From NCBI GenBank assembly GCA_004195045.1, contig SGBC01000001.1:842178-906177 (forward strand): a stretch of DNA of 64,000 nt. The letters are read 5' to 3'. A model generated the notes under the pieces. It saw only the letters and a program-made list of their open reading frames with translations. It did not search any database and had not been told where the DNA came from. Positions 296 to 63,091 of the stretch are shown here, in pieces. Origin of the DNA: Candidatus Acididesulfobacter guangdongensis. Its GTDB lineage: Bacteria > SZUA-79 > Acidulodesulfobacterales > Acidulodesulfobacteraceae. Position 1 is the stretch's first letter, and every line of letters starts with the position of its first letter. The translations under genes were made by a program, and so were the position numbers.

Positions 296-1394
296 TTTTA
301 CTATTTTTGAAACAATTAAAGCCGGTTCTGAATATTTAAAAGAAAACAATAACGAGATTCTTGATTGTTTTAAAGAATCCTTGCTTCTTATGAGTTATGC
401 TTTGAACGTTTCTATTGAAAGAATTATTGTAAACTATGAAAATAAAATAACTGAAGACAAGCTGAATATTTTTAACGGTTATATCGAAAGAAGGGCAAAA
501 AAAGAACCATTCGCGTATATAATTAACAATAAAGAATTTTATTCTATAGATTTTTTTGTGGATAAAAATGTTCTGATACCCAGACCTGATACGGAAATTT
601 TAGTTGATGAAAGTTTAAAAGAAGTTTATAGATTAAATAATAAAAAAATAAACAGCGCCAATTCTTATAGCCGTCATAACTACAATGAGCCGGATATAAA
701 AAATAATACAGCTAAAAACATCAGCGTTATAGATATCGGCACGGGTTCAGGCGCCATTGCGGTATCAATAGCCAAGAACTACAAATATTCAAATATTGAA
801 ATATTTGCAGCCGATAATAGCTGTAAGGCTTTAAATGTTGCAAAAAAAAATGCAGTATTAAATAATGTAGAAAATAAAATTAAATTAACGTATTTTAATA
901 TTTTAAATCCAAATATATGCTGGTATAATGAATCTAGTAAAAAATATAGTACCGATTTTTACAATTTTGATATTATAATATCAAATCCGCCTTATATAAT
1001 ATCGTCTGATGTCGGTTTTCTCAGCGATGAAGTTAAAAATTACGAACCTTGTGCAGCTCTTGACGGAGGTATTGACGGGCTTAAATTTTACAGGAAAATA
1101 TTCGAATTGTTTTCTTCGGCAATAGAAAATTCGGTTAATAGTAATTTAACAGATAGAGAATTTTGTTTATTATTAGAAATAGATCACAGATATAAAGAAG
1201 AAATAAAAAAAATTTATGAATTGACATTTTACGGTAAAGATAATAAATATAATAATAGTTGCGAAGATTATAAATATAAAATAAATACAAAAGGTAATAA
1301 AAACAATCCAATCAATATAACAATCAATTTTATAAAAGACCTGTCAGGAAAAGAAAGGGTGGCAAAGATTAATTATGGAAAAAATGATAATTGA
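264..1394 (+). CDS. prmC: Release factor glutamine N5-methyltransferase
   Basis: Methylates the glutamine of the GGQ motif of release factors using S-adenosylmethionine. Visible are an N-terminal helical region with the family stretch around residues 79-108 (KKEPFAYI, then LIPRPDTE), the SAM-binding motif DIGTGSG at 157-163, and the substrate-binding NPPY at 241-244. The protein is 376 residues against about 280 for the family. The extra length is an Asn/Lys-rich insert near residues 123-152 and further loops around 215-235 and 325-352. The start is a TTG inside prfA; no better start in frame restores the family N-terminus. Its 3' end overlaps murA by 20 bases, so translation is probably coupled along prfA-prmC-murA. 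Confidence 0.93.
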
Positions 1395-2703
1395 AGGCGG
1401 TATCCCTTTAAGGGGTGAAGTATCTATAAGCGGTTCGAAGAACGCTGCATTACCTATTATTGCATCATCTATTATGTTTGACGATTCCGACAATGAACTG
1501 TGTAATGTTCCAAATCTTCAGGATATAGCTACTATTAAGAAACTTCTTGTCAGTCTTAATGCCGAGGTAAAAGATTCGGACGACGGAAAATTATCTATAA
1601 ATACCTCGACCATTAACAACTTTGATGCACCATATGACCTTGTGAAAACTATGAGGGCTTCGGTTCTTGTTCTTGGACCGCTGCTTGCTAAATACAAAAA
1701 AGCCAGAGTGTCGCTTCCGGGCGGATGCGCTATCGGAGCGAGACCTATCGATTTCCATTTGCAGGCGCTTAGGGCTCTCGGCGCCACTATTAAGATGGAA
1801 CATGGATATGTTGAGGCTACTGCCGGAAAACTTAAAGGCGCTGAAATTATTTTTCCGATACCTTCTGTTACAGGAACGGAAAACATTATTATGGCGGCAA
1901 CGCTTGCGGAAGGCACTACTGTTATAAAAAATGCAGCAAGAGAGCCTGAGATAGACGATTTAATTCTTGCTTTATGCAACGGCGGAGCAAATATTAAAAG
2001 AGTCGAACCGTCCGTTATAGTCATCAAAGGAGTTAAAAAGCTGAATAAATTAAGCCATTATATTGTTTCAGACAGAATTGAAGCGGGTACCTATATGGTT
2101 GCTTCGGCTATAACGCAAGGCGATATTATAGTGAAGAACGTTAATCTGAATCATATGGGCGCAATTATAGATAAATTAACCGAAGCAGGTGTAAAAATAA
2201 ACGTTGTTTCAACTTCTTCGGTAAGGGTAAAAGGACCTAAAACGATTAAAAGCGTTGATATTTCAACTGCTCCTTTTCCTTATTTTCCCACGGATATGCA
2301 GGCTCAAATGATGGCGCTTATGTCTATTGCAGGAGGATTGTGTGTTATAACCGAAAATATTTTTGAAAATAGATTTATGCACGTAGCTGAACTGAGAAGG
2401 CTTGGAGCCGATATAAAAGTATGCGGTAATTTTGCTATAGTAAAAGGAACAAGCGCTTTGTCGGGAACTGAAGTTATGGCGACGGATTTGAGAGCAAGCG
2501 CATCGTTAGTTCTGGCAGGGCTGGCTTCGTCCAAGGATTATACTTCTATATCGAGAATATATCATTTAGACAGAGGATATGAGGCTATGGAAAAAAAATT
2601 ATCCGGTTTAGGCGCTATTATTTCAAGAACAGATGATTCAAACACGGCGGATTATAATGATGAATATTTATCAAATCAATCAATAGCATCGGGAATTAAA
2701 TAA
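1375..2703 (+). CDS. murA: UDP-N-acetylglucosamine 1-carboxyvinyltransferase
   Basis: First committed step of peptidoglycan precursor synthesis in the cytoplasm: transfers enolpyruvate from PEP to UDP-GlcNAc. The 442-residue length is only slightly above the family norm of about 420. Key residues are present: SKNAAL at 21-26 (the conserved Lys22 equivalent) and the PEP-binding cysteine C118 inside PGGCAIGARPIDFHL. The cysteine means fosfomycin sensitivity would be expected at this residue. The start overlaps the end of prmC, and the stop codon is followed immediately, with no spacer, by the hisG ATG. The C-terminal 20 residues form a polar tail not needed in the family. Confidence 0.96.
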   Translation: MEKMIIEGGIPLRGEVSISGSKNAALPIIASSIMFDDSDNELCNVPNLQDIATIKKLLVSLNAEVKDSDDGKLSINTSTINNFDAPYDLVKTMRASVLVLGPLLAKYKKARVSLPGGCAIGARPIDFHLQALRALGATIKMEHGYVEATAGKLKGAEIIFPIPSVTGTENIIMAATLAEGTTVIKNAAREPEIDDLILALCNGGANIKRVEPSVIVIKGVKKLNKLSHYIVSDRIEAGTYMVASAITQGDIIVKNVNLNHMGAIIDKLTEAGVKINVVSTSSVRVKGPKTIKSVDISTAPFPYFPTDMQAQMMALMSIAGGLCVITENIFENRFMHVAELRRLGADIKVCGNFAIVKGTSALSGTEVMATDLRASASLVLAGLASSKDYTSISRIYHLDRGYEAMEKKLSGLGAIISRTDDSNTADYNDEYLSNQSIASGIK

Positions 2704-3441
2704 ATGAAAGAAAAGGTGAGGATTGCAATTCCGAAAGGACGCGTACTTGAAAGTGCCCTTGATTTATTAAGAAAATCAGGGTTCATTAAACATTCCGATG
2801 AAGATTATAATTCTCGAAAATTAATATTTAATTATGAAGATGATAATGCAAAGTTATTAATAGTCAAACCATGGGATGTTCCTACGTTTGTTGAGTATGG
2901 TGCGGCGGATATCGGAGTAGCGGGAAAAGACATTTTGCTTGAGAAATTTAAAAATGTTTACGAACCTCTTGACTTGGGCATTGGTAAATGCAAGATAGCA
3001 GTTGCTGTGCATAAATCAATAAATTTTGGCAATATTGCCGGTGCGGATGCAGCAGTTTTAGGACAATCGGACAAAAATGAAAAAAAAGCAATCAACGGTA
3101 ATGAAACGAATAATATTCGGACTGCATTATATCTGTCAAACAATATAAGAGTGGCAACAAAATATGTAAACATAACAAAAGATTTTTTTAAAAAAAAAGG
3201 TATAAGCGTTCAGATAGTCAAACTATACGGAAATATTGAACTGGCTCCTTTAACCGGACTTTGCGAGGTCATAGTGGATCTTGTATCTACCGGTGAAACT
3301 CTGAGGCAAAACAATCTTTTGCTTATTGAAGAAATAGCCCTTATAACATCCCGTTTAATCGTCAATAGGGCAAGCTTAAAAACAAACCCCAAAGAAATAC
3401 ATAATATTATAATGAGAATAAATCAAAATATAAAAGCATAA
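2704..3441 (+). CDS. hisG: ATP phosphoribosyltransferase, short (HisG_S) form
   Basis: First step of histidine synthesis: condenses ATP and PRPP. The N-terminus (RIAIPKGRVLESALDLL) and the end (LIVNRASLKTNPKEI) match the short form, which lacks the C-terminal ACT-like regulatory domain. Length is 245 rather than about 210 because of a polar insert near residues 117-140. Short-form enzymes are known to need the HisZ regulatory subunit, and no hisZ is seen in this window. The ATG follows the murA stop directly and no Shine-Dalgarno is visible, so translation is probably coupled. It is the first gene of the his cluster. Confidence 0.93.
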   Translation: MKEKVRIAIPKGRVLESALDLLRKSGFIKHSDEDYNSRKLIFNYEDDNAKLLIVKPWDVPTFVEYGAADIGVAGKDILLEKFKNVYEPLDLGIGKCKIAVAVHKSINFGNIAGADAAVLGQSDKNEKKAINGNETNNIRTALYLSNNIRVATKYVNITKDFFKKKGISVQIVKLYGNIELAPLTGLCEVIVDLVSTGETLRQNNLLLIEEIALITSRLIVNRASLKTNPKEIHNIIMRINQNIKA

Positions 3442-55695: not shown

Positions 55696-55986
55696 ATGAT
55701 TATGGCAAACGTGAATAAAATGGAAAATAATAAAAAAGATTTCAGTATGAAACACCGTCATATAAATGCAGATATTAAAAAAAGCCTTTCTTTAGAGGCA
55801 ATAGACGATATTATCTCCAGAGGCGATATGCCGGAATGGCTGGAACTAAGGAACTATGCCTTGCGTCATTCTGAAATACTGGATGATATAATAAGAATTT
55901 GCAGCCATTACATAATAGATCCTTATGAACAGAAATATCATTTCTGGTATAATTTAGCTTTATATCTTAAATCAAAGGAGATATAA
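55696..55986 (+). CDS. Small partner protein of the nucleotidyltransferase (putative antitoxin)
   Basis: 96 residues from ATG 55696, or 93 from ATG 55705. Helical, with SLEAIDDIISRGDMPEWLELRNYALRHSEILDDIIRI. It lies two bases before a nucleotidyltransferase gene in the layout of MNT/AbiE-like toxin-antitoxin pairs. No DNA-binding motif is evident. Weak AAAGG precedes the start. Confidence 0.55.
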   Translation: MIMANVNKMENNKKDFSMKHRHINADIKKSLSLEAIDDIISRGDMPEWLELRNYALRHSEILDDIIRICSHYIIDPYEQKYHFWYNLALYLKSKEI

Positions 55987-55988
55987 CC

Positions 55989-56699
55989 ATGAAAAACGAT
56001 AAAGAAGAAGATTGGGAAAACGTTATTTCAAATATAGCAAGAATTAACGATATTTTGCCAGACGCTATTATAGTAGGGAGAACTGCATCTGCTTTATATT
56101 CAGAACACAGAACATCACATGATACGGATCTTGTAATTAAAGACCTAAAAGAAAGATTTAACGATATATTATCAACACTTGAAGCCGTATCCGGATGGAA
56201 GACATCAAGAATTAGACCGCCGGTATTAATCCTCGGCAGCCTTAACGGCATTGAAACAGGCATAAGACAACTTATAAGGACTAAACCTTTAGAAACAACC
56301 GATATAGAATATAAAGGGCAAAAATTAACCGTGCCTACTCCGGAAGAAATCTTAAGAATTAAAGGTTTTTTAATACTTGCCAGAAATGCTACGCGCGATT
56401 ATATCGATTTTGTAGCATTAGCCGATCATCTTGGGATTAAAAAAACTAATAAAGCTTTAACGAGTTTCGATGAATTATACCCTCAAGAAAATAAGGCTTC
56501 CGCTTTAAGACAACTTATTGTTCAATTAACGAAACCGATGCCTTACGATTTAAAAGAAACTGATTTGACTAAATACAAAAATCTTGATAAAAAATGGCAG
56601 GATTGGCAGAATATAGAAGAATATTGCAAAAAGATTACTATAAATATTTTCACAAATTATAATCCTAAATTAGAACAAACTCAAACTCCAAATCCGTAA
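55989..56699 (+). CDS. Nucleotidyltransferase-fold protein, toxin-like (AbiEii/MNT type)
   Basis: 236 residues. The nucleotidyltransferase site is VGRTASALYSEHRTSHDTDLVIKDL near residues 31-55, with the metal-binding D-x-D (DTDL) and a G-R/G-S-like turn before it. PTPEEILRIKGFLILARNATRDYIDF near 116-141 matches the second half of this family. Related toxins modify tRNA or other targets by nucleotide transfer. Here toxicity is inferred from the fold and the paired small gene. It has its own Shine-Dalgarno (AAAGGAGAT). Confidence 0.7.
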   Translation: MKNDKEEDWENVISNIARINDILPDAIIVGRTASALYSEHRTSHDTDLVIKDLKERFNDILSTLEAVSGWKTSRIRPPVLILGSLNGIETGIRQLIRTKPLETTDIEYKGQKLTVPTPEEILRIKGFLILARNATRDYIDFVALADHLGIKKTNKALTSFDELYPQENKASALRQLIVQLTKPMPYDLKETDLTKYKNLDKKWQDWQNIEEYCKKITINIFTNYNPKLEQTQTPNP

Positions 56700-57539: not shown

Positions 57540-59492
57540 TTAAACATTGAGCAATTTTTTAATAGGTTCAAAATCGCTATTATTTGCTTCAATGAATGCG
57601 GTATAATCCTTATCGATAGATTGCAGTATAGTTTTATCTTTAATATTTAAAATAGCATCTTTTATTTTTAATTTTAAATCTTCATCAATACCGGCAGCGG
57701 CGCAAATCGGGAATTGAGGTATAGGGTCAGAATAGGCTATAATTTTTAGGGAATCTTTAAAATCTTCCGCCGCAGAGTCCATTAATGCTCCTGCATCATA
57801 TTCTCCTTCTATTACGGCATTGGCTACATTATCATGCGAACCAAGATAATCGTATGCGGCAAGAGATATAAGTTCAATGCCTGCCGCTTTAAGCATAGCT
57901 TTTGGGATGAGCGAAGAGCCTGTCGACATTTTAGAACCGAAAGCTATCTTTTTTGAATTTAAGTCCTGCAGAGAATTTATATTAGAATTTATCGGTGCGA
58001 CGAAAACGCTTCTGTAAGTGGGAGAGCCATTTTTTATCGCATATGTAAGAGGTTCTACTTTGTACTTTTTTCTTGCCTCTATATATGTTGAAGGCGTCAT
58101 GTAAGCAAAAGAAACTTTATTCGTACCTAATTCTTCAATAGAATCTTCATATGTAACTGCAACTAAGCTGCTGTAATTTAATTTTAAAGACTTGTTCAGA
58201 TAATTTATTAACGGTTCAAATTTCTTTTTCATAACTAATGCGCTTTCTAATGGAACTATACCGAAAAGATCTAATTTTAGGGAACATAGTTCGACTTTTA
58301 AAAGATTAGAAGATTTTGCCAGCGATGAACTTATTGTTTTTGATTTTTTTGCAGCCTCTGTCGTGTTTGCAGAGACCTTTTGAACTATAGTAAGATTTTT
58401 TTCTACTTCTGTTACGGCAATTTCTAGTTGTTCCGCTGAAGAAGATATTAAATCGATGCTATTTTTTTCCTCGCCTGCAGCTTTCATAATATTATTAAAT
58501 AATTCTTCCGCCTGCATAGATTCCGAACTTATTTTTTTAACGTTTTCTATTACGTCTTTAATAGCTTGAACGGTTTTTGAAGTTTCTTGAAACAGGCTTT
58601 CTATGATTTTTCTTGTGTCTGAGGTTGACTTACTGGTTCTTTCAGCTAATTTTTTAACTTCATCAGCTACTACGGCGAAGCCTCTGCCCTGTTCTCCGGC
58701 TCTTGCGGCTTCTATTGCAGCGTTTAATGCCAGCAAATTTGTCTGGTCGGCTATATCGCTTATCAGTGATATAACGTCCCCTATCTCTTTTGAGCTTTTA
58801 TCAAGTTCAGTCATGGTAACATTGAGATTCTCGATAGAATTTGATACTGTTCTTATTTCGGTTATAATATTTTCTATCATTGCATTTCCTTTATTTGCTC
58901 TTTCAAGAGAAGTTTTGGAAGATTTTTGTGAATCTTTGGCGCTTTTAGTCATTTCTTTGTGCGACATGCTAATTTCGTCAATTGCACTGGAGATAGAAGC
59001 AACCTGCCCTGATAGCGATTCATTTTCTTTATAAATCTTATCCATTGAAGCGCTTTCAATATTTGCATCGACTGCAACAATGTTTGTAGAATCCAGAGCT
59101 TTTTGGAACGTATTGTAAAGATAATCAAACAAACTATTGATTTCACGGTCTATATTATACAAATCAACGTAAGGCAGCCGTTTCCTTAAATCTTTATTCT
59201 CAGTTAAAAAGTCATTTAAAAAAACATTGATTTTATTTGCTTTTGTTTCAGTTATTTTATTAGAAATAAATATATTAGCATAATACACAATAGCAATGAT
59301 GACTACCGCAACGGACAGCATAGAATTATGCTGAATAAAAGAAATGGCAAGAAAAAAAAGAGCTACAATTGCAAATACGATTATTAGCCCTGTTTTCAAT
59401 ATTGCGTTAGTATGTTTGTTTGCATTTTTATTAGTATATAAGATACTATTTTTTTTAATAGTACTATTATTGCTTGCAAAATTGCTTTTCAT
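57540..59492 (-). CDS. Chemoreceptor signalling domain fused to a PhnD-like binding domain
   Basis: 650 residues. N-terminal tail, then two membrane helices at about 32-52 and 57-78 with almost no loop between them. Residues 150-400 are a methyl-accepting chemotaxis signalling coiled coil with the hairpin tip [20 protein letters not shown] and [18 protein letters not shown] near 250-288. Residues 405-650 form a PhnD-type substrate-binding domain ([50 protein letters not shown]). By topology this domain is in the cytoplasm, placed after the signalling tip. Strong Shine-Dalgarno. The pairing is explained under findings. Confidence 0.85.
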
Positions 59493-59769
59493 AATATATT
59501 ATTGTCCTCCCAATGTACTGTATCGATATACGGTATAGTTAATTACAAGTCAATATAGCCGATTGGCGCTAGTCTAGTATAATAAATTTGCACTTGATAA
59601 ACAGCAAGTGATATTTCTATATTTAATAAAATATTAATATCAGTTTGTAGCTCTTCATCATTCTTTTTATTATTTGAAATTACAAAATTATCGTAACATT
59701 GTACTATTTTTTACTTTGTAATTCTACCACAAATTACGCCGCTATGTAAATAATAAACAAAACCCGCTA

Positions 59770-60732: not shown

Positions 60733-62310
60733 TTATTTAACTTTTAAAATTTTTAACGCATTCTCTGCCATCATTAATTCTTCGTCAGTTTTAACGGCAA
60801 GAACAATAGTTTTGCCTGAGCTTATTTTTATCATTGAATTTGTAATATTTAATGATTGTAATTTAGATCTGCTGTTGAAAATTTTTGTTACGCCGTTATT
60901 TTTTGATTTATTAAGTTTTATACCTAAGAACGAAAGATTTTTACATATTTCTTGCCTGATAAACGATGAATTTTCACCTATGCCCCCTGAAAAAATTAAC
61001 GCATCTATGCCGTTTAGCGCCGCAGAATACGCTCCTATATATTTTACGATCCTGTAACAAAACATTTTAATCGCTAATTTTGAATTATAATCGGAATTCG
61101 TCAAAAGTTCTTTCACATCATAGGTTTTCTGAGAAATTCCAAGCAATCCGCTTTTTTTGTTATATATATTATATAGCTCTTCTTCAGATAATTTTAATTT
61201 ATTTTTTAAAATAAAAGATAACGACGGATCGACATCCCCTGTTCTTGTTCCCATCATCAATCCTTCTAAAGGCGTATAACCCATTGACGTGTCTATAGAT
61301 TTACCATTTTTAACCGCCGCAATACTTGCTCCGTTTCCAAGATGGCACAGTATCATTTTTTTAAATTTGTATCCGGACAGCTTCAGAATATTAGAAATAA
61401 AAGCATAGGAAATGCCATGGAATCCATATTTTTTTATTTTATGCTGCTCGTAATATTCTATAGGAAGAGGATATATTGAAGCATAGTCTGGAATTGCAGA
61501 ATGAAAAGAGGTGTCGAATATGCAGATTTCGGCTGCTTCAGGTATGAGCTTTATTGTAGTTTTAAGCCCAAGTAAATTTGACGGGTTATGAAGAGGAGCA
61601 AGTTCGTTAAGTCCGGCTAATTTTTTTAAATCAGGAAAATTTATATGTAACCCGGTATCATTATCATATTTATCTGCAGCGTCTTTTATTTCAGCGCTTT
61701 GCGTATTTCGTTGAGAAGGCAGCGTGATGTTTTGTGTTGATTTAGAATTAGAAACGCTATTTTTAACGTTTTTTAGCAGTTTGTTCTTATTTAAAATTTC
61801 AAGAGGTTTAATTACAGGTTTAATTACAAGAGGCTTAATAAAAACATTGCCTCCGTGAACAAATCTGTGTACTACTACGTCAATTTTTTCATCTTTATTA
61901 TCTATATCTATATTTATATTTTTGTATATTAATTTATTAATTATAAAAAATAATGCATCATGATGATTTGCAAAATTTGTTTTACCACTTTTTTTGCCGT
62001 CTGCATTTTCATAGCGGTATGAAGAAAAGGATGTTCCTATTTCTTCTATCTCTCCGTCGTACAATCTATTAAGCGAAAGCAGTATCGGCAGTTCTGATGC
62101 CGAGCCTTTTTCAGATGGACATCCTTTCTCGTTATTTTTACAGCTTGTTTTAATTTTATTTATGAAATTAATATTATTAATACTTTTATTAATCTTATTA
62201 TTATCAATTAGCTGCTTATTATTATCAATTACTTGAGATGTTTTTTCTATATACTTAAAATAAGCAAATTTAACAGAGGAACTTCCGGAATTTATAGACA
62301 GTATATTCAT
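60733..62310 (-). CDS. ackA: Acetate kinase with two polar inserts
   Basis: Converts acetyl phosphate and ADP to acetate and ATP. The N-terminal SINSGSSSVKFAYF, the HRFVHGGNVF block, the adenosine/phosphate site LCHLGNGASIAAVKNGKSIDTS, and PLEGLMMGTRTGDVDP are all present. So is FSGGIGENSSFIRQEI near 462. Length is 525 against about 400. Insert one (about 20-75) contains an IDNNK repeat; insert two (about 180-225) is Ser/Asn/Lys-rich. Catalytic blocks are intact, so it is probably functional. It follows the PhoU-like gene by 43 bases and precedes the acyltransferase. Confidence 0.92.
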   Translation of the reverse strand: MNILSINSGSSSVKFAYFKYIEKTSQVIDNNKQLIDNNKINKSINNINFINKIKTSCKNNEKGCPSEKGSASELPILLSLNRLYDGEIEEIGTSFSSYRYENADGKKSGKTNFANHHDALFFIINKLIYKNINIDIDNKDEKIDVVVHRFVHGGNVFIKPLVIKPVIKPLEILNKNKLLKNVKNSVSNSKSTQNITLPSQRNTQSAEIKDAADKYDNDTGLHINFPDLKKLAGLNELAPLHNPSNLLGLKTTIKLIPEAAEICIFDTSFHSAIPDYASIYPLPIEYYEQHKIKKYGFHGISYAFISNILKLSGYKFKKMILCHLGNGASIAAVKNGKSIDTSMGYTPLEGLMMGTRTGDVDPSLSFILKNKLKLSEEELYNIYNKKSGLLGISQKTYDVKELLTNSDYNSKLAIKMFCYRIVKYIGAYSAALNGIDALIFSGGIGENSSFIRQEICKNLSFLGIKLNKSKNNGVTKIFNSRSKLQSLNITNSMIKISSGKTIVLAVKTDEELMMAENALKILKVK

Positions 62311-62353: not shown

Positions 62354-63091
62354 TTATAATGCGGCATTTTCAATAATTCTGTATGAGAATACCGCAATTT
62401 CTCTTAAATAAGAAACTATTAATGAATAATATATAATTTGACTTTTGACATCATATCCGTACGTATGAGCTTCTACGGTTGAAAGATCTTTTATTATTTT
62501 ATCACAAATGAAATCAATATTCTTTACCTCCTGCCATGTTTTTTTTAGTATTTGCTGTTTATAAGTTTTATCATTGATTTTATTGCCGTATAATTCGCGA
62601 TTTTTATTATTAAAATTTAATAAAGTATAGAATGTGTCTATAGTATTTTTAACTATTGAACTTATCATTAGCGCAAGTTCGGGAATATAAGACTGTTTTT
62701 TTAAAGCAGGATACCGAGATATATTTTTAATATTAAGTTTTATTAGAAGATTTAATGTGTAGATATTTTGCATTGAATTGCAAAATGGACTAAATTTAAG
62801 TACATTTTCATAAATACAGAGCTTGCTTTTGTCTTTTGATTGCCTTAATCCTTTGTTGGTTATAACGCCTATAATTAGCTTATAAATTTCGTTATTAAGT
62901 TCCGTTATAATATTATCTTTAATATCGTCTATGCCTGTTTCTGAGTCAACTATATTAAATTTATTATTAATAATAGAATTGAGGTCTTTTTCCAGATTGT
63001 TTTCCACAAAACCGGATAACACTATGGAATTGTCAGATAGTTTCTTTATTATGTTTTCTGTAAAAATAGCCATTTGAAAATTATTTATCAT
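62354..63091 (-). CDS. PhoU-like helical protein (putative)
   Basis: 245 residues, almost all helical. LSGFVENNLEKDLNSIINNKFNIVD near 22-46 and the closing YYSLIVSYLREIAVFSYRIIENAAL resemble the helical repeats of PhoU (a phosphate transport regulator), though the acidic metal-binding residues are only partly kept. It begins the PhoU-like/ackA/acyltransferase set, so a link between acetyl phosphate or phosphate state and energy metabolism is possible. The family call is by pattern only. Confidence 0.5.
   Translation of the reverse strand: MINNFQMAIFTENIIKKLSDNSIVLSGFVENNLEKDLNSIINNKFNIVDSETGIDDIKDNIITELNNEIYKLIIGVITNKGLRQSKDKSKLCIYENVLKFSPFCNSMQNIYTLNLLIKLNIKNISRYPALKKQSYIPELALMISSIVKNTIDTFYTLLNFNNKNRELYGNKINDKTYKQQILKKTWQEVKNIDFICDKIIKDLSTVEAHTYGYDVKSQIIYYSLIVSYLREIAVFSYRIIENAAL

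What the first reader, a model, noticed from the sequence alone, without database searches (positions are those of the whole stretch)
57540..59492. Chemoreceptor with a PhnD-like binding domain after the signalling tip, in the cytoplasm
In classic chemoreceptors the ligand domain is periplasmic and N-terminal. Here two membrane helices with almost no periplasmic loop are followed by the MCP hairpin and then a full periplasmic-binding-type PhnD domain, so ligand sensing would happen in the cytoplasm at the C-terminus. The usual C-terminal docking/methylation tail is absent. It may sense an internal phosphonate, phosphite or other small anion; this is inference. It is separated only by a 277-base gap from the PhoU-like/ackA/pta genes, which would fit a phosphate or energy signal, but the link is only by position.
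Basis: partly seen in the sequence, partly recalled or inferred. Interest (0 to 1): 0.65.

Follow-up and report, generated by a model that had tools for sequence, protein, structure and literature searches.

The report
Chemoreceptor with internal anion-binding tail
A bacterial navigation receptor carries its anion-binding sensor at its tail end inside the cell rather than outside; the same arrangement recurs in several distant bacterial groups, so these microbes probably steer by something in their own cytoplasm.

Summary
Confirmed. Window 57540-59492 (-) is one intact 650-aa gene: N-in transmembrane hairpin, degenerate HAMP-like segment, complete MCP signalling hairpin, then a complete PhnD/PtxB-type substrate-binding domain (PF12974, E 4e-59) at the C-terminus. 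No membrane segment follows the hairpin, so the domain lies in the cytoplasm. AlphaFold2 gives it high confidence; closest solved folds are phosphite-binding PtxB (Z 25.9). It is no assembly error: the fusion occurs in 18 of 30 genomes of the family (Acidulodesulfobacterota), in Nitrospirota and in Gammaproteobacteria. A separate soluble MCP-PF12974 fusion without any membrane helix arose independently elsewhere (one clade rejected, AU p=1e-6). The oxyanion-contact residues of PtxB are invariant, while the phosphite-specific Tyr/Asp cap is replaced by invariant Phe/Leu, so I predict binding of a small oxyanion, not phosphite with PtxB's specificity. The sensor domain is better conserved across phyla than the signalling arms. 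C-terminal cytoplasmic sensors are known (TlpD/CZB); I found no description of this sensor type. New variant of a known kind; ligand unknown.

The parts
57540..59492 (-). mcp-sbp fusion gene, 650 aa (stop included)
   Evidence: orthologues
59505..59511 (-). Shine-Dalgarno-like GGGAGGA, 12 nt before the ATG
   Evidence: sequence
59331..59390 (-). transmembrane helix 1 (residues about 35-54)
   Evidence: hydropathy; helix in model
59262..59321 (-). transmembrane helix 2 (residues about 58-77); periplasmic loop only a few residues
   Evidence: hydropathy
59103..59261 (-). degenerate HAMP-like segment (residues about 78-130)
   Evidence: aligned with Pfam HAMP of L063/L067; no HAMP match of its own at E 0.01
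58284..59153 (-). MCP signalling hairpin, residues 114-403 (Pfam MCPsignal 191-373)
58638..58751 (-). conserved CheA/CheW-contact tip, residues 248-285
   Evidence: alignments
58428..58433 (-). E354-Q355, possible methylation pair in a partial motif (E354 invariant in all 20, both invariant in the family)
57543..58280 (-). cytoplasmic PtxB/PhnD-type substrate-binding domain, residues 405-650
57711..58250 (-). predicted ligand pocket: L415, Y448, Y493, S523, T524, G525, H553, F594
   Evidence: mapping on Te_PtxB contacts (PMC5700983)
59770..60708 (-). phosphotransacylase (pta/ptb-type), upstream neighbour; association conserved in genus only
60733..62310 (-). acetate kinase family (ackA, 525 aa), upstream neighbour

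Best explanation
It is a membrane-anchored chemoreceptor that senses the cell's interior. The two transmembrane helices only anchor it; the sensor is the C-terminal PtxB/PhnD-type clamshell at the membrane-proximal base of the MCP hairpin, joined by about five residues to the end of its second long helix. A small oxyanion in the cytoplasm is predicted to be held by Y448, Y493, the S523-T524-G525 helix N-terminus and H553. Closing of the two lobes would then pull or twist the second helix and change CheA activity at the tip, and so flagellar behaviour. Shown: gene, domain order, predicted fold, topology by prediction, conservation, pocket residues, and presence of che genes and flagellin genes in the genome. 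Inferred: ligand binding, ligand identity, coupling and output. The ligand is most likely a phosphate-type ion (orthophosphate, phosphite, or a small phosphoryl compound), with a sulphur oxyanion such as thiosulphate or sulphite as second choice. The altered cap (L415/F594 for PtxB D22/Y208) argues against phosphite-specific binding of PtxB type.
For: Full PF12974 domain; top structural match PtxB closed form, Z 25.9, rmsd 2.4 A over 242 residues. All mapped pocket positions are invariant in 20 fusions of three phyla (8 of 8, against 51 of 246 in the domain; hypergeometric 2e-6). The domain is more conserved between phyla (43-49%) than the MCP region (27-34% over 126-402, tip included). A soluble fusion without any transmembrane segment, in the same order, exists in 13 of 149 genomes of another phylum, and all fused domains as one clade are rejected, p-AU 1.3e-6, so the order arose at least twice. 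The own genome has CheA, CheB, CheR, CheW and flagellin genes, and its only PF12974 protein is this one. Precedent for a C-terminal cytoplasmic sensor driving the hairpin: TlpD (PMC12871147).
Against: No ligand, binding or taxis data exist. The conserved motif is also shared by transport SBPs, so its retention in part reflects family descent. Topology rests on hydropathy and charge, not experiment. The hairpin is modelled with only moderate confidence (pLDDT about 50-70) and only as a monomer. Canonical methylation motifs are degraded in this family.
Confidence: 0.7

Rival explanations
1. The C-terminal domain senses a sulphur oxyanion (thiosulphate, sulphite or tetrathionate) and links taxis to sulphur metabolism.
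For: PF12974 domains sense tetrathionate and thiosulphate in the TtrS and ThsS kinases (PMC5408782). Two host groups, Acidulodesulfobacterota and Acidiferrobacteraceae, belong to sulphur cycling by my own knowledge. ArrX of the same fold crystallised with sulphate bound (6x8w). The apolar cap would suit a non-oxygen fourth substituent.
Against: The pocket's closest sequence relatives are phosphite binders. TtrS matches only weakly (E 0.002). No sulphur genes were recognised beside it in the loci read (by eye, neighbours not searched by family).
Confidence: 0.25
2. It senses the acetyl-phosphate or phosphate pool set by its neighbours AckA and Pta.
For: ackA-pta-mcp order is conserved in the genus; pta and mcp are 21 bp apart in L052 and L053, which fits one transcript.
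Against: Not conserved in sister genera, Nitrospirota or Gammaproteobacteria, although the mapped pocket residues are identical there. Gaps are 277, 381 and 543 bp in three species.
Confidence: 0.12
3. The domain no longer binds a ligand and serves as a structural cap or as a protein-docking module.
For: SBP folds can lose the binding motif: the tandem SBPs L081 and L085 lack it.
Against: All contact residues are invariant here, across three phyla.
Confidence: 0.1
4. Frameshift, assembly error or chance joining of two genes.
For: Unusual domain order.
Against: Same intact fusion in independent assemblies from genus to other phyla.
Confidence: 0.01

Closest known systems
PtxB, phosphite-binding protein (PDB 5jvb, 5o2j; PF12974, TIGR01098)
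   Same: Fold (Z 25.9), about 30% identity, oxyanion contacts Tyr/Tyr/Ser/Thr/His.
   Different: PtxB is a separate periplasmic SBP of an ABC transporter. Here the domain is cytoplasmic and fused to an MCP; cap residues D22 and Y208 are L415 and F594; S132 is G525.
TlpD and other CZB chemoreceptors (C-terminal cytoplasmic sensor)
   Same: Sensor at the C-terminus, at the base of the MCP hairpin, in the cytoplasm.
   Different: Sensor is a zinc-binding four-helix bundle, not a substrate-binding clamshell; TlpD is soluble, this protein is membrane-anchored.
TtrS/ThsS tetrathionate and thiosulphate sensor kinases
   Same: PF12974 domain used as the sensor of a signalling protein.
   Different: Domain is N-terminal and periplasmic; output is a histidine kinase.
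Classic transmembrane MCPs (Tsr, Tar, McpB)
   Same: Transmembrane hairpin, HAMP-like segment, MCP hairpin with the conserved tip.
   Different: No periplasmic ligand domain; a C-terminal cytoplasmic sensor instead.
Soluble MCP-PF12974 proteins found here (L082, L100-L106)
   Same: MCP followed by PF12974 at the C-terminus.
   Different: No membrane segment; different pocket cap (K-D); independent origin.

Membership tests
Methyl-accepting chemotaxis proteins (PF00015) | MCP signalling domain with conserved tip | tested here: met
   E 1.5e-40; tip residues invariant
Methyl-accepting chemotaxis proteins (PF00015) | Methylation sites in the hairpin | tested here: inconclusive
   Only a partial motif at 350-359 here; canonical in L063-L069
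Methyl-accepting chemotaxis proteins (PF00015) | CheA, CheW, CheR, CheB partners in the genome | tested here: met
Classic MCP with periplasmic ligand domain | N-terminal periplasmic sensor of 100 residues or more between two transmembrane helices | tested here: not met
   loop of a few residues
PF12974 / TIGR01098 substrate-binding family | Domain match above curated cut-off | tested here: met
   200 bits against 27; 155.5 against 112
PhnD (TIGR03431 equivalog) | Score above equivalog cut-off 261 | tested here: not met
   121 bits
PtxB phosphite-specific binding proteins | Oxyanion contacts Tyr, Tyr, Ser, Thr, His | tested here: met
   Y448, Y493, S523, T524, H553
PtxB phosphite-specific binding proteins | Capping Tyr locked by Asp | tested here: not met
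   F594 and L415, invariant in the family
PtxB phosphite-specific binding proteins | Exported, partner of an ABC transporter | tested here: not met
   The domain follows a cytoplasmic MCP hairpin with no further membrane segment; transporter subunits were not searched
CZB chemoreceptors (TlpD type) | C-terminal cytoplasmic sensor on the MCP hairpin | tested here: met
CZB chemoreceptors (TlpD type) | CZB zinc-binding domain | tested here: not met
   No CZB match; PF12974 in that place
Any of these | Measured ligand and taxis response | not testable with these tools
   needs bench work

The most novel reading that the evidence does not exclude
A class of chemoreceptors, arisen at least twice, in which a transport-type clamshell was moved into the cytoplasm to make motility follow an internal oxyanion pool (phosphate, acetyl phosphate or a sulphur oxyanion): metabolism-dependent taxis through direct binding of an internal anion.
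Probability: 0.4. Interest if true: 0.7.

Novelty: new variant of a known kind. Interest (0 to 1): 0.5.

Why it matters
Substrate-binding clamshells of this family normally work outside the cytoplasmic membrane. A receptor that uses one inside the cell, with its pocket kept across phyla and the order evolved more than once, would mean bacteria can steer by an internal anion pool through direct binding, rather than through redox or proton-motive-force proxies. It also gives a ready test system: soluble versions exist that could be purified whole.

Tried and rejected
Assembly or frameshift error: rejected by homologues. Phosphite-specific sensor of PtxB type: weakened by the changed cap. PhoU link: no Pfam match at E 5; AF2 model of the 245-aa neighbour has mean pLDDT 50.8, so no fold search was made. 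General link to ackA-pta: only in the genus. Single origin of all MCP-PF12974 fusions: rejected for the sensor domain; for the membrane-bound core family the MCP tree neither supports nor rejects one origin (p-AU 0.47). Origin from a tandem mcp-sbp gene pair as in L087 (mcp at 1229-3271, exported SBP at 291-1184, same pocket signature): attractive, but tree support is weak (82/78). Literature on MCP-PhnD fusions: none found, in an open-licence library only; domain-architecture databases (InterPro, MiST) could not be consulted and probably list these proteins. Counting the fusion across Nitrospirota failed because named loci cannot be used as a search centre.

Full report
What is there. The - strand ORF 57540-59492 encodes 650 aa with a good ribosome-binding site. 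Pfam finds MCPsignal at 191-373 (E 1.5e-40) and the whole PF12974 profile at 410-641 (E 4.1e-59). NCBIfam gives TIGR01098 above its cut-off, while the PhnD equivalog is far below its own. Hydropathy shows a transmembrane hairpin at about 35-77 and nothing later. The N-terminus is basic, so the order is N-in, short outside loop, C-in, and the C-terminal domain is in the cytoplasm.

Structure. AlphaFold2 with 20 homologues gives the C-terminal domain a pLDDT mostly of 87-95, and the long hairpin 114-264/266-403 with lower values. The closest solved structures for 407-650 are PtxB with phosphite (5jvb, Z 25.9, 2.4 A, 242 residues), ArrX, HtxB, PhnD and AioX. The first strand of the domain begins about five residues after the second hairpin helix ends.

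Pocket. In Te_PtxB phosphite is held by Y55, Y100, S130, T131, S132 and H160, and capped by Y208 locked to D22 (PMC5700983). The phmmer alignment maps these to Y448, Y493, S523, T524, G525, H553, F594 and L415. All eight are invariant in 20 fusions from three phyla, against 51 invariant positions of 246 in the domain (hypergeometric 2e-6). The oxyanion site is thus kept and the phosphite-specific cap is not. In Te_PtxB, Y208F and Y208A weaken phosphite binding by orders of magnitude, so the ligand or the affinity range should differ here. The domain is 43-49% identical between phyla, but the MCP region only 27-34%, whereas ligand domains of chemoreceptors are usually the fast-evolving part (PMC8547431).

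Distribution. A contig of G002 (322,929 bases) has the same length as the record SGBB01000001 of 'Ca. Acididesulfobacter diazotrophicus', so the window belongs to that genus (inference). Full-length fusions occur in 7 of 7 genomes of the genus and in 18 of 30 of the family (some are cut by a contig end). The same fusion occurs in five Nitrospirota and two gammaproteobacterial MAGs. A longer form with an N-terminal membrane and periplasmic part, MCP and C-terminal PF12974 occurs in six of eight genomes of a further phylum and in G314. A soluble form (MCP then PF12974, no transmembrane segment) occurs in 13 of 149 genomes of another phylum at a strict cut-off (the eight read in full have no membrane segment). 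The tree of sensor domains rejects one clade for all fused domains (p-AU 1.3e-6), so the same order arose at least twice.

Context. The genome has a che cluster with CheA, CheB, CheR and CheW, and two flagellin genes. This is its only PF12974 protein. Its other transmembrane MCPs align in the hairpin almost without gaps and also lack a docking tail, so a shared array is plausible. The gene follows ackA-pta in the genus, 21 to 543 bp downstream of pta, but not in sister genera or other phyla.

Mechanism. Shown: domain order, predicted fold and topology, pocket conservation, che and flagellar genes. Inferred: a small cytoplasmic oxyanion closes the clamshell and so moves the second hairpin helix and changes CheA activity. 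The closest working precedent is TlpD, in which a C-terminal cytoplasmic CZB sensor changes the distal kinase interface through the coiled coil (PMC12871147). Ligand identity is open; phosphate-type ions come first by homology, and sulphur oxyanions second because PF12974 sensors for them exist (PMC5408782).

Judgement. Cytoplasmic C-terminal sensors on MCPs are known; a PtxB-type clamshell there was not found described, within the limits of the literature library. I file it as a new variant of a known kind.

Noticed in passing
window 55696-56699 (+); L052 6388-7397 (-); L059 6166-7108 (-): A two-gene pair (96 aa, and an AbiEii-like nucleotidyltransferase, PF08843 E 6.8e-5) lies convergent to the 3' end of the mcp fusion gene in the window and in two relatives, one of another genus.
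   Followed up: partly
window 60733-62310 (-): The acetate kinase is 525 aa, about 120 longer than usual, with a Lys/Asn-rich extra stretch near the N-terminus; orthologues in the genus are 499-535 aa.
   Followed up: no
window 62354-63091 (-): 245-aa helical protein upstream of ackA, conserved in the genus, with no Pfam family at E 5 in the window copy and a poor AF2 model.
   Followed up: partly
L087 291-3271 (G288): An mcp gene (sCache, HAMP) directly followed, 44 bp on, by an exported PF12974 protein with the same PLE/FPIC pocket signature: a possible unfused counterpart of the receptor.
   Followed up: partly
L078, L079, L089-L091, L093, L094: The long MCP-PF12974 proteins lack the usual tip pattern LNAAIEA although the MCPsignal match is strong in the two scanned (L078, L079).
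   Followed up: no
L112 919-1374 (G000:C3 about 285400): A 152-aa ORF holds only the tip and C-terminal arm of an MCP and looks like a truncated receptor gene.
   Followed up: no
window 57540-59492: C597, beside the cap in the motif PIPQFPIC, is invariant in all membrane-bound fusions and in the free SBP of L042/L087; its role is unknown.
   Followed up: no
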